A stretch of 64,000 nucleotides of DNA from Clavibacter californiensis (GTDB lineage: Bacteria > Actinomycetota > Actinomycetes > Actinomycetales > Microbacteriaceae). How positions within the stretch are numbered: position 1 is the stretch's first letter; every line of letters begins with the position of its first letter. The stretch spans positions 1,116,001 to 1,180,000 of the forward strand of contig NZ_CP040792.1 in NCBI RefSeq assembly GCF_021952865.1, read 5' to 3'. Made by a program: the position numbers and the translations under genes. The notes beneath the pieces were generated by a model. The model saw only the letters and a program-made list of their open reading frames with translations, made no database searches and was not told the DNA's origin. Of the stretch, positions 24,929 to 28,353 are shown one piece after another.

Positions 24929-25726
24929 TCAGCCCGCCGGCACGCAGGGGCTGTCGCAGCCCGCGGCACGCTGGCGCTCCATCTCCCGCTCGCGCGCCCG
25001 CTCCAGCAGCGATACGTGCAGGTAGCCCGCGTACCCGCCGGGGGTGCGCCCCTCGCGGCGGCTCGACGTGAGCACCTCACCGGCCGCCGACGCCGTGATC
25101 CGCGCGTCGAGCGCCCGGAGCCTGCCCACCAGGTCGACGTCCTCGTGCTCCGCGACGGCCGGGAAGCCGCCGGCCGCGGCGTAGGCGTCCGCGCGCACGC
25201 CGAGGTTCGCGCCGTGCACGTGCCCGTTGGCGTGGCCGGCGACTCGGGTCGCGCGCCAGGCGGCGACCTGATCCGGGCTGAGGTCCTCCAGCTCGGGGCG
25301 GACGGTGCCGACGACCACGTCGGCCCCCGCGTCCGCGAGCTCGAGCTGGCTCGTGATCCACGCGGGCGGCACCGCGGAGTCGGCGTCGGTGCACGCGATC
25401 CAGTGCTCGGCGTCGTCGCCGTCCCAGCCCGCGCGGGCCGCGTCGACGCCCTGGGCGCGCGCGGCGCCCACGCGCCCGGCGGCGCTCTCGATGACCTCGA
25501 CGCCCGCGGCGCGCGCCACCTCGGCGGTGCGGTCCCTGCAGTCGTCGGCCACGAGGATCACGCGCACTCGCACCCCGTCCGCCCGTGCGCGGGCCGCGGC
25601 GACCTCGACCGACGCGAGGCAGCGGCCGACCAGCGCCTCCTCGTCGCGCGCCGGGATGACGACCGTGACCGCGCGGATCCGCGGGGCCGGCTCGACCCCG
25701 GCCGCCGCGGCCGATCCGCTCGTCAC
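24929..25726 (-). CDS. Glycosyltransferase family 2
   Basis: 265 residues, GT-A fold. The nucleotide-sugar site starts with VTVVIPARDEEALVGRCLASV, the metal-binding DxD-like motif is in WIACTDADSAVPPAW, and GANLGVRADAYAAAGGFP with the downstream AEHEDVDLVGRLR (ED motif) completes the family-2 set. No membrane segments, so it acts in the cytosol. The start GTG 25726 overlaps the stop of the triple-domain gene upstream (GTGA), so sugar transfer is coupled to the deacetylase/methyltransferase steps. The sugar and acceptor are unknown. The last residues (GCDSPCVPAG) carry two cysteines of no known role. Confidence 0.9.
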   Translation of the reverse strand: MTSGSAAAAGVEPAPRIRAVTVVIPARDEEALVGRCLASVEVAAARARADGVRVRVILVADDCRDRTAEVARAAGVEVIESAAGRVGAARAQGVDAARAGWDGDDAEHWIACTDADSAVPPAWITSQLELADAGADVVVGTVRPELEDLSPDQVAAWRATRVAGHANGHVHGANLGVRADAYAAAGGFPAVAEHEDVDLVGRLRALDARITASAAGEVLTSSRREGRTPGGYAGYLHVSLLERAREREMERQRAAGCDSPCVPAG

Positions 25727-28353
25727 CGCAGCCCCGTGCGCACGGCGACCGAGCGCGGATCCGCCGACAGCACCTCGAGCAGGAAGTCGTCCTCCTCGTG
25801 CCGCGCCAGCACGTGCAGCCCGGGGACGGCGGCGAGCCGCGCGTGCACCTCGTCGCCCGTGCGCCGGAAGTCGCCCTCCGGGTGCCGCCAGTGGCAGGCG
25901 ACCAGCGTGCCGGTGGCGCCGAGGGCGCCGGGCAGGGCCGCGAGCACGCGGTCGAACGCGGCGTCGTCGAGGTAGTAGCCGACCTCGCTCATCACGACGA
26001 GGTCGAACTGGCCGGCCGGCCAGTCGGCGCCCATGTCGCGCACCTCGAGGCGCACGTGCGGGGCGTCGGCGAGGCGCACGCGCGCCCGCTCGACCGCGGT
26101 CGGCGCGACGTCCACGGCCAGCAGCTCGTCCACGCGCTCGGCGAGACCGGCCGTCGTCACGCCGATGGAGCAGCCGATCTCGAGCGCCCGGCGGTACCGC
26201 TCGTCGGGCAGCGCCGCCAGGGTGGCGAGGCGCTTGCGGCGCTCGTACCAGCGGGTCGTGACGCGCCACGGATCCTCGGCCCGGGCGTACGCGGCGTCGA
26301 AGCGCTCGGCGGCGGAGGGCGTCGCGGTCGCGTCGTCGGACACGATCAGCACCTCGCGGTCGCGGTCGGCGTGCCGGAGGAACCCGGGCTGCAGCACGGC
26401 CGCGTCCTCGGGGGCGTCGGACAGCGGATCCACCTGGCTGGCGTGCGCACGGATCGCGGCCCGCTTGGCCTCCCGCACGCGCGCGTCGAGCGGCAGCGCG
26501 CGCATCTGGGCCCACGGGACGCGCGGGTCGTCGGGCGTCGCCCAGTGCCACATCCACACCGGGTACTCCACGAGCCGGATCCCGCGCCCGGCGGGCAGCG
26601 CGCCCACCAGCTCGGCGACGACCTCGCCCGTGACGCGGTGGTCCCGGTGCCCGTCGCCGCGCCACGGTGCCGCGACCCAGGTGCCCGGCGCGGCGTCGGC
26701 GAGGAGCGCGGCGAGGTCGTCGCGCACGGCGTCGCGGCGCTCGCGGATCCCGCCGTCGGGGTGCCCGAGGAGCACGAGCCGGGCGGCGGGCGCGACCTCG
26801 TCGAGGGCGGCGCGGGCCTCGTCGCGGCGGAGGGCGACGAGCTCGTCGGGTGTGCGCGTGGGGGATCCGGGGTGCGAGGCGGCGCCGTCCGTCACGATCG
26901 CGAGGGTCACCGGCACGCCGCGCGCGGCCGCGGTCGCCATCAGCCCCGCGGCGCCGATCGACTCGTCGTCGGCGTGCGCGGAGACCACGAGAAGCCCGGC
27001 CATCCCCGTGAGGTCGGGCGCGTCGAGCGCGTCCCAGCGCGGATCCGCGTCCCAGGCGCCCGCGTCGGTGCCGGGCTCGCGCGCGTCGAACGCGACGCTC
27101 ATCGCGGGCGTCGCGTCGGTCCCGGTCGCCGGACCGGCTGCCGTGGCCGTGGCGGTGTCCGTCGTCGTCGCCGTCGTCGTCGCCTCCGCGTCCGCATCCG
27201 AGGCCCGCCGCCGCGCCACCTCCGCGAGCGCCCCGCCGAGGGACGCGTCGTCGCGCTCCGCGTGGTGCTGCCGCACGTACAGCCCGAGGTCGGCCACGCG
27301 CTTGGCGTGATCCGCGTCCTGCGCGAGCGGCGCCGGCCCGAGCGCGTGCGCCGCATGGGTCAGGGTCTCGTCCACCGCGCGGGCGACGACGGCGCGCACC
27401 CGCTTCGCGAGCAGCCGCCCCTCCTCGCCCGAAGCGAGCCCGCGGTCGACCAGCCCGGCGGCCTCGGCGAGGGACGCGCGCGCGCCGTCGAGCGCCGCGT
27501 CCACGGCCCCCAGGTGCATGAGCAGCAGTCGGTCGGCGCCCTCGCGGGACGCGGCCCGGAGCAGCGTGCGCGCCAGCCCGACCGCGCCGCCGTACCAGCA
27601 GGCCGCGACCTGGATCCCGCCCCAGTGGAACCCGGGCCGCTCGAGGTACCAGCCGGGCGCGCCCACGCGTCGCGCCGGCACGTCGCGCATGCGCAGCGGC
27701 CCGCTCGGCACCTCCACGAGCCCGCGGGCGACCCACGCGCCGGGCACGACCTCGACCCCGGGCTGTCGGAGGTCCACCGCGAAGAGGCCGCGCGAGCCGT
27801 CATCGTCCGCGGCGGTGATGAGGGCGTGCGTCAGCGAGCCGGCGAGCGAGCACCACGGCTTCGTGCCGGACAGGCGCACCGCGTCCGGCCCGTCGGCGTC
27901 CGCCACGGCCGTCAGCGGATCCCCGCCGCCCTCGGCCGCGAACACGCCCCAGGTGCGCGCCGCGGCGTCGCCCGCGTGCGTAGCGTCGCCCGTGGCGCCG
28001 TCCTCGCCCGCGGCGTCCCGCTCCTGATCGAGGATCGCGAGCGCGTCCAGGTGCGGCTCGACCGTCCGCGCGATGCCGAGGTCGGCCGCGGCGAGCGTCG
28101 CGAGCGCCTCCCAGAGATCCGCCGTGCGGCCCGCACCCGGCCGCGCGCCGGCGTCGCCGAGCGCGACCGCGAGCGCCAGAGCCCGCTCAGTCGTCCACGC
28201 CGGCCCCGGGGGCGTCTCCGCGAGCGCCGCGCGCACGAGCGCGACGGCGGGTCCCGGCCGGTCATCGCCCGGCGGCACCGCGCCGGATGCGAGGCGGACG
28301 CGCGCGGGGACCTCCGCGTCGAGGGGGTGGGCGGGCTGGGGGCCGGATGTCAC
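25723..28353 (-). CDS. Triple-domain protein: acyl-CoA dehydrogenase-like, PIG-L deacetylase, SAM methyltransferase
   Basis: 876 residues in one open frame. Residues about 1-380 are acyl-CoA-dehydrogenase-like (ADLGIARTVEPHLDALAIL, GTKPWCSLAG, LYVRQHHAERD). Residues about 384-417 are a low-complexity Thr/Ala linker coded by near-perfect trinucleotide repeats. Residues about 450-650 are a PIG-L/LmbE zinc deacetylase (SAHADDES and GDGHRDHRV). Residues about 670-876 are a NodS-like class I methyltransferase (RRALEIGCSIGVTTAGL). In many actinobacteria the last two domains form one gene and the dehydrogenase a separate one; fusion of all three is odd. The internal ATG 27102 has no ribosome site. 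GTG 28353 is the best start; ATG 28470 is an alternative. Coupled to a glycosyltransferase gene. Confidence 0.85.
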   Translation of the reverse strand: MTSGPQPAHPLDAEVPARVRLASGAVPPGDDRPGPAVALVRAALAETPPGPAWTTERALALAVALGDAGARPGAGRTADLWEALATLAAADLGIARTVEPHLDALAILDQERDAAGEDGATGDATHAGDAAARTWGVFAAEGGGDPLTAVADADGPDAVRLSGTKPWCSLAGSLTHALITAADDDGSRGLFAVDLRQPGVEVVPGAWVARGLVEVPSGPLRMRDVPARRVGAPGWYLERPGFHWGGIQVAACWYGGAVGLARTLLRAASREGADRLLLMHLGAVDAALDGARASLAEAAGLVDRGLASGEEGRLLAKRVRAVVARAVDETLTHAAHALGPAPLAQDADHAKRVADLGLYVRQHHAERDDASLGGALAEVARRRASDADAEATTTATTTDTATATAAGPATGTDATPAMSVAFDAREPGTDAGAWDADPRWDALDAPDLTGMAGLLVVSAHADDESIGAAGLMATAAARGVPVTLAIVTDGAASHPGSPTRTPDELVALRRDEARAALDEVAPAARLVLLGHPDGGIRERRDAVRDDLAALLADAAPGTWVAAPWRGDGHRDHRVTGEVVAELVGALPAGRGIRLVEYPVWMWHWATPDDPRVPWAQMRALPLDARVREAKRAAIRAHASQVDPLSDAPEDAAVLQPGFLRHADRDREVLIVSDDATATPSAAERFDAAYARAEDPWRVTTRWYERRKRLATLAALPDERYRRALEIGCSIGVTTAGLAERVDELLAVDVAPTAVERARVRLADAPHVRLEVRDMGADWPAGQFDLVVMSEVGYYLDDAAFDRVLAALPGALGATGTLVACHWRHPEGDFRRTGDEVHARLAAVPGLHVLARHEEDDFLLEVLSADPRSVAVRTGLR
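27159..27186. repeat. Trinucleotide repeat in the domain linker
   Basis: On the plus strand GTC/GCC triplets (GTCGTCGTCGCC twice) run through this stretch, coding for Thr/Ala on the minus strand. It joins the dehydrogenase-like and PIG-L domains. Slippage here could have fused or could re-split the gene. Confidence 0.7.

What the first reader, a model, noticed from the sequence alone, without database searches (positions are those of the whole stretch)
25723..28353. Three enzymes fused: acyl-CoA dehydrogenase-like, PIG-L deacetylase and SAM methyltransferase in one 876-residue protein
Seen: one open frame carries all three domains with intact motifs (LYVRQHHAERD; SAHADDE and GHRDH; EIGCSIG). 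Known: the PIG-L/methyltransferase pair is often one gene in actinobacteria and the dehydrogenase-like gene is its neighbour. Inferred: here they are one polypeptide, which would hold three steps on one intermediate. The internal ATG 27102 lacks a ribosome site, so separate translation is unlikely.
Basis: partly seen in the sequence, partly recalled or inferred. Interest (0 to 1): 0.72.

Follow-up and report, generated by a model that had tools for sequence, protein, structure and literature searches.

The report
Three-enzyme fusion unique to Clavibacter
In Clavibacter, neighbouring enzyme genes that related bacteria keep apart have merged into one gene for one 876-residue protein, a neat recent evolutionary step in a widespread, uncharacterised and probably sugar-modifying pathway.

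Summary
On the minus strand, 28353 to 25723, one frame encodes 876 residues: an acyl-CoA-dehydrogenase-fold flavin domain, a PIG-L deacetylase and a NodS-like methyltransferase; a GT2 glycosyltransferase gene overlaps the stop. All 17 informative genomes of the genus (Clavibacter) carry the fused frame; the eighteenth has an assembly gap there. Outside the genus no fused copy was found: 0 of 26, 0 of 74 and 0 of 20 loci read directly (partly the same genomes). In relatives the dehydrogenase-like gene ends in a stop that overlaps the PIG-L start (RTGGTGA in 72 of 74). In Clavibacter that codon is GTC in 15 of 17, a variable Ala/Thr/Pro linker precedes it, and 8 of 17 genes have no start codon in the linker, so separate translation there is very unlikely. 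The first domain keeps conserved flavin-fold motifs, but an invariant Gln seems to lie where classical acyl-CoA dehydrogenases have their catalytic Glu, so its reaction should not be assumed. My best chemistry, inferred only: tailoring of an amino sugar made with the GT2 enzyme. New variant of a known kind: a stepwise operon-to-gene fusion.

The parts
25723..28353 (-). fused gene, 876 aa: GTG start 28353-28351, TGA stop 25725-25723
   Evidence: 17 of 17 informative genus genomes fused
27208..28296 (-). residues 20-382: acyl-CoA-dehydrogenase-fold domain (KPWCS 165-169; Gln362 at the likely catalytic Glu position)
27097..27207 (-). residues 383-419: Ala/Thr/Pro-rich variable linker, partly predicted disordered (pLDDT under 50 at 398-418)
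27100..27102 (-).
27094..27096 (-). residue 420, GTC: matches the Val of the PIG-L start region of relatives (RTG-GTG); GTC in 15 and GTG in 2 of 17 genus genomes
26341..27096 (-). residues 420-671: conserved N-terminal arm and PIG-L deacetylase (His460, Asp462, Asp463, His569, Asp571, His572)
25726..26313 (-). residues 681-876: NodS-like class I SAM methyltransferase (Glu725, Gly727, Gly731)
24929..25726 (-). GT2 glycosyltransferase, 265 aa; its GTG overlaps the stop of the fused gene (GTGA)
   Evidence: RTGA at the stop in 17 of 17 genus genomes; GT2 homologue within 1.5 kb downstream in 76 of 79 named loci

Best explanation
A real, fixed gene fusion of the genus Clavibacter. Shown by sequence: a conserved gene set, flavin-fold enzyme | PIG-L | methyltransferase | GT2, has its enzymes in separate genes in the annotated plasmids of Proteobacteria, Kitasatospora and Deinococcus that I read, mostly has PIG-L and methyltransferase joined in Micrococcales, and in Clavibacter also has the flavin-fold enzyme joined, the overlapping stop/start having been replaced by a flexible linker. 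Inferred, high confidence (about 0.95): one roughly 90 kDa polypeptide is made, with little or no separate PIG-L/methyltransferase. Inferred, moderate (about 0.4): with the GT2 enzyme the protein tailors an amino sugar of a glycoconjugate. GT2 transfers a sugar, the PIG-L zinc site removes an N-acetyl (or other acyl) group, the NodS-like domain N-methylates the freed amine, and the flavin domain oxidises or N-oxygenates the product. The fusion would fix a 1:1:1 ratio and keep the sites close. Channelling is not shown.
Against: The chemistry rests on families only; no substrate is known. KijD3 and DnmZ do not stand out: TdsC/DszC and acyl-CoA dehydrogenases score as high or slightly higher, DnmZ is not among the 50 rows, and in the profile search at E up to 0.1 neither is among the 20 hits. 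The Gln362 equivalence comes from one profile alignment of 50.6% probability, with its place just after, or at the end of, helix 347-361/362 in agreement. The linker itself shows no purifying selection (differences at codon positions 1/2/3: 0.447, 0.314, 0.421), and short repeats of period 3, 6 and 12 could keep frame by slippage. Long tails on the separate enzyme are not confined to Frigoribacterium (L108, Sanguibacter). pTM of the full model is 0.52, so no domain arrangement is predicted.
Confidence: 0.6

Rival explanations
1. Same fusion, but the first domain is a true dehydrogenase acting on an acyl chain (for example of a glycolipid) with another residue as base.
For: Acyl-CoA dehydrogenases are among the top fold matches (short-chain 31.1, isovaleryl 30.9-31.3, butyryl 30.4); best sequence-profile hit is 7xp7, named cyclohexanecarboxyl-CoA dehydrogenase and ColB1, a flavoprotein for tethered cysteine dehydrogenation; the Pfam middle domain matches in 51 of 52 members at E up to 0.01; separate relatives are annotated as acyl-CoA dehydrogenase.
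Against: Gln362 is invariant in 52 of 52 at the aligned Glu position, and Gly245 is invariant near where isovaleryl-CoA dehydrogenase carries its Glu (that placement is recalled and aligned by eye).
Confidence: 0.25
2. Fused frame, but a second, shorter PIG-L/methyltransferase is also made by internal initiation or proteolysis of the linker.
For: The window species has an ATG at residue 418, and 9 of 17 genus genomes have some ATG/GTG/TTG between residues 377 and 420; a Met or GTG near residue 451-456 is common; an unstructured linker can be cut.
Against: No start in the linker is conserved; 8 of 17 have none before the conserved arm; an SD-like stretch precedes only 2 of the candidate starts (L013, L017); initiating at 451 would drop an arm that relatives keep.
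Confidence: 0.15
3. The open frame is an artefact of 79% GC or of a sequencing error, and two proteins are made as in relatives.
For: Reverse frames over the gene are also open; in other genomes frames run through by chance (G678, G080 and G721 rows; the last two resolved); in L126 the two genes even share a frame, with stops between.
Against: 17 genomes agree; the coding parts share one open frame in all 17, whereas they are in different frames in 26 of 26 relatives.
Confidence: 0.02
4. The flavin-fold domain is no longer catalytic and serves as an oligomerisation scaffold.
For: Acyl-CoA dehydrogenases are often tetramers (recalled); the canonical base seems to be missing.
Against: Lys165, Trp167, Cys168 and Ser169 in 33 of 33 rows of A2 that cover them, and Gln362, His364, Asp368 in 52 of 52 rows of A1, more than a dead scaffold needs.
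Confidence: 0.1

Closest known systems
Separate dehydrogenase-like gene, PIG-L-methyltransferase gene and GT2 gene of Microbacteriaceae and other Micrococcales (e.g. Frigoribacterium, Cellulomonas)
   Same: Same domains in the same order in most loci, GT2 next; about 35-63% identity
   Different: The first gene ends in its own stop, usually ...W-stop with RTGGTGA overlap (72 of 74), mostly in another frame (26 of 26; L126 is an exception)
Separate enzyme genes on plasmids of Pandoraea, Acinetobacter, Comamonas, Kitasatospora, Deinococcus
   Same: Acyl-CoA dehydrogenase, PIG-L, methyltransferase in the same order; a glycosyltransferase follows in Pandoraea, Acinetobacter and Comamonas
   Different: All enzymes separate; in Deinococcus the glycosyltransferase is on the other strand, in Kitasatospora none is annotated next; the three proteobacterial regions lie near stress genes
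Group D flavin monooxygenases: TdsC/DszC, KijD3, DnmZ
   Different: 17-21% identity; activity untested; no flavin reductase domain in the Pfam scan
Nod-factor enzymes NodC/NodB/NodS (roles recalled)
   Same: GT2, an N-deacetylase and a NodS-family methyltransferase together
   Different: PIG-L is not the NodB fold (recalled); NodS equivalog score 72.4 against a cut-off of 300

Membership tests
Acyl-CoA dehydrogenase (classical) | three-part fold (helical, beta, helical) | tested here: met
Acyl-CoA dehydrogenase (classical) | Pfam domains over curated cut-off in the window protein | tested here: not met
   Acyl-CoA_dh_M 25.6 bits against 33.3; PF00441 not found at this gene in the own-genome search. 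Relatives score better: PF02770 in 51 of 52, best E 6.9e-11, and PF00441 in 19 of 52 at E up to 0.01
Acyl-CoA dehydrogenase (classical) | catalytic Glu (EGT motif; recalled) | tested here: inconclusive
   aligned with Gln362, Gln in 52 of 52, so apparently absent; but alignment probability is only 50.6% and a Glu elsewhere is not excluded
Group D flavin monooxygenase | acyl-CoA-dehydrogenase fold | tested here: met
Group D flavin monooxygenase | sequence or fold closer to monooxygenases than to dehydrogenases | tested here: inconclusive
   profile hits and fold matches mix both
Group D flavin monooxygenase | uses reduced flavin and O2 | not testable with these tools
   needs enzyme assay
PIG-L deacetylase | Pfam PF02585 over cut-off and zinc-site residues | tested here: met
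   88.3 bits against 28.2; His460, Asp463, His572 in 42 of 42 rows that cover them; which residues bind zinc is recalled
NodS N-methyltransferase | Pfam NodS over cut-off | tested here: met
   57 bits against 24
NodS N-methyltransferase | NCBIfam NodS equivalog over cut-off | tested here: not met
   72.4 bits against 300
Three-domain fusion as one gene | one open frame, kept across the genus | tested here: met
   17 of 18, the other an assembly gap
Three-domain fusion as one gene | one polypeptide found in cells | not testable with these tools
   needs proteome data

The most novel reading that the evidence does not exclude
The fused protein is a three-site amino-sugar tailoring enzyme (de-N-acylation, N-methylation, flavin N-oxygenation) of an undescribed glycoconjugate pathway, in several lineages placed among stress genes, that is spread over Proteobacteria, Deinococcota and Actinomycetota and has been collapsed stepwise into one polypeptide in Clavibacter.
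Probability: 0.25. Interest if true: 0.65.

Novelty: new variant of a known kind. Interest (0 to 1): 0.4.

Why it matters
It is a clear snapshot of stepwise gene fusion with the intermediate states in living genera, and the fusion argues that the enzymes of a widespread set, for which my searches found no functional study, work together. That gives a concrete lead on the function: a search for an N-methylated, possibly N-oxidised amino sugar.

Tried and rejected
Sequencing error or chance frame: rejected by 17 genomes. Internal start at ATG 27102: rejected as a general mechanism (1 of 17). Independent fusions elsewhere: the family (199 genomes searched, 72 with matches at E up to 1e-10, 4 of them of the genus; list of matches cut by the tool), order (198, 55), class (197, 39; both at E up to 1e-40) and phylum (198, 17; E up to 1e-30) searches each include the window's own genome and list no other match, outside the genus, that proved to be one gene. 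Matches that reach far into the first domain without a stop, or look like one piece (G134, G188, G089, G042, G118, G125; G129, G078; G337; G721), were read and are separate genes. The samples overlap and are a small part of the 97,973 genomes held. Codon-position bias as proof that the linker is coding does not help: the linker evolves without visible constraint, and its GC periodicity is weak (position 3 highest in 12 of 17). Foldseek 'pdb' search never ran, the machine stayed busy; pdb_via was used instead and gives no residue-level superposition, so Gln362 rests on hhalign plus helix position. A second own-genome dehydrogenase (L142) aligned only over the middle domain and says nothing about Gln362. 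Literature: nine searches, of which I saw listings; 'Clavibacter' with 'PIG-L' found 0 papers, 'bifunctional PIG-L family deacetylase' 0, and no listed title or abstract start named this gene set (one search listed 20 of 50). Most subscription papers are not in that library, so it may be in print elsewhere. Neighbourhood in Micrococcales: from heuristic ORFs, of which I looked at a few families by eye, a Dps/ferritin gene recurs: by tblastn in 17 of 74 non-Clavibacter loci (one of them, L120, a weak 30% match), directly upstream in 10, of which 9 are Cryobacterium; not in the window.
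Full report
What is there. The finding's coordinates hold a minus-strand gene: GTG at 28353, TGA at 25725-25723, 876 residues. The next gene, a 265-residue GT2 glycosyltransferase at 25726-24929, starts inside the stop (GTGA). Pfam gives PIG-L and NodS over their cut-offs and the acyl-CoA dehydrogenase middle domain below its cut-off. NCBIfam gives only matches far below their cut-offs, best NodS and the bacillithiol deacetylases BshB2 and BshB1. PDB sequence search: methyltransferase 4isc (E 2.2e-42), NodS 3ofj, and several PIG-L proteins. 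The full AlphaFold model has pLDDT 87.1 and pTM 0.52, with pLDDT under 50 at 1-11, 366-375 and 398-418: well-folded domains joined by a partly disordered linker, with no predicted arrangement. Modelled alone, the first domain has pLDDT 89.6 and pTM 0.89.

Is the fusion real? In the genus 17 of 18 genomes match end to end without a stop. G003 (620 contigs) has no match; the gene-side ends of its flanking matches lie 68 bases from the edge of contig C254 and at the edge of contig C3, so this looks like an assembly gap. Outside the genus, direct reading of the junction found separate genes in 26 of 26 loci, 74 of 74 and 20 of 20, and in L126-L129, L152 and L154; some genomes are in more than one of these sets.

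How it arose. In 72 of 74 named relatives the junction reads RTGGTGA (55 GTGGTGA, 17 ATGGTGA; the other two are GACATGA and GCGGTGA): the flavin-fold enzyme ends Trp-stop and the PIG-L gene starts at the overlapping RTG or GTG. In Clavibacter the homologous 'V-A-F-D-A-R' is kept, but Val420 is GTC in 15 of 17 and GTG in 2. Before it lies an Ala (38%), Thr (13%), Pro (10%) rich linker with 12 lengths among 17 genomes, always in frame. If indels were free of frame, 11 changes would all be multiples of three with probability about (1/3)^11 (my arithmetic); short repeats of period 3, 6 and 12 make that an overstatement. In 8 of 17 there is no ATG, GTG or TTG in frame between residues 377 and 420, though the arm 420-452 shows coding periodicity in 17 of 17. 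A tree of 17 fused and 45 separate pairs (45 chosen of 74 loci) puts the fused ones in one clade (support 100) beside eight Frigoribacterium rows (support 85). Three of those (L058, L063, L071) have flavin-fold enzymes with long Ala-containing tails that still end in Trp-stop, as expected of a pre-fusion state; the others have shorter tails, and one Sanguibacter (L108) has a long tail too. Further out, annotated plasmids of Pandoraea, Kitasatospora, Acinetobacter, Deinococcus and Comamonas have the three enzymes as separate genes in the same order; the glycosyltransferase follows on the same strand in Pandoraea, Acinetobacter and Comamonas, is on the other strand in Deinococcus and is not annotated next in Kitasatospora. 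Of the 40 rows listed (152 records matched), 20 name three separate products under the match and none names a fused one; others lack annotation or cover only part. Within the family the arrangement also varies: PIG-L and methyltransferase are in separate ORFs in 5 of 20 loci.

What it may do. PIG-L His460, Asp462, Asp463, His569, Asp571, His572 and SAM-motif Glu725, Gly727, Gly731 are the same in 42 of 42 rows that cover them. The first domain keeps Lys165, Trp167, Cys168, Ser169 (33 of 33), and Gln362, His364, Asp368 (52 of 52). That Trp and Ser of such a motif lie at the flavin in acyl-CoA dehydrogenases is recalled. Profile alignment with a canonical acyl-CoA dehydrogenase of the same genome (L141...IYSYEGTREMN...) sets Gln362 on the Glu of EGT (probability 50.6%). 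The models agree, with helix 347-361 or 347-362 ending there. That this Glu is the usual base is recalled. Fold matches tie between monooxygenases (TdsC 31.9, DszC 31.1, KijD3 30.1) and dehydrogenases (isovaleryl 31.3, short-chain 31.1), so the fold does not choose. PMC6165268 (passages only) states that group D monooxygenases have the domain found in acyl-CoA dehydrogenases and that N-hydroxylations are described. PMC10696468 (passages only) names the acyl-CoA dehydrogenase fold as one of three folds of flavin monooxygenases. With a deacetylase, a NodS-family methyltransferase and a GT2 next door (76 of 79 named loci; of the other three L055 is at a contig end, L083 and L091 are unexplained), amino-sugar tailoring is the reading I prefer. 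The order of steps, the substrate and channelling are not shown.

Context. Three of the proteobacterial plasmid regions that I read lie among stress genes: between trehalose-6-phosphate synthase and otsB in Comamonas antarctica, near catalase and trehalose genes in Acinetobacter ursingii, near catalase and a PA2169-family protein in Cupriavidus, where PIG-L is not between the other two genes. In nine Cryobacterium loci and one other a Dps gene lies 144-273 bases before the matched start of the flavin-fold enzyme. In the Clavibacter window the gene sits beside ORFs that look like purine-synthesis genes (named by eye), so no stress link is seen here.

Verdict. The fusion is real, genus-wide and, among what was searched, found only in Clavibacter. 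It is a new variant of a known kind, of moderate interest mainly for what it says about an uncharacterised gene set.

Noticed in passing
L160 and L167 (unnamed Microbacteriaceae): The methyltransferase gene lies before the dehydrogenase-like gene, so the order is changed; in L161, L162 and L165 PIG-L and methyltransferase follow in the usual order but not in the same ORF.
   Followed up: partly
L152 (G721:C5:15500-19500): PIG-L of this gene set is split over two frames, either a broken gene or an assembly error.
   Followed up: no
L153 (G735:C94:29000-32000): Dehydrogenase-like gene directly followed by the methyltransferase, with no PIG-L match between; a PIG-L match lies on another contig. 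Cupriavidus (L138) also has no PIG-L between them.
   Followed up: no
L140 4523-9519: The four genes lie between trehalose-6-phosphate synthase and otsB in Comamonas antarctica.
   Followed up: no
L089, L090, L095, L096, L097, L101, L106, L114, L119, L124: Dps (ferritin-like) gene 144-273 bases before the matched start of the dehydrogenase-like gene; nine of the ten are Cryobacterium.
   Followed up: partly
window 24929-28353, + strand: At 79% GC the opposite strand is open for hundreds of codons over these genes, so ORF length alone means little here.
   Followed up: yes
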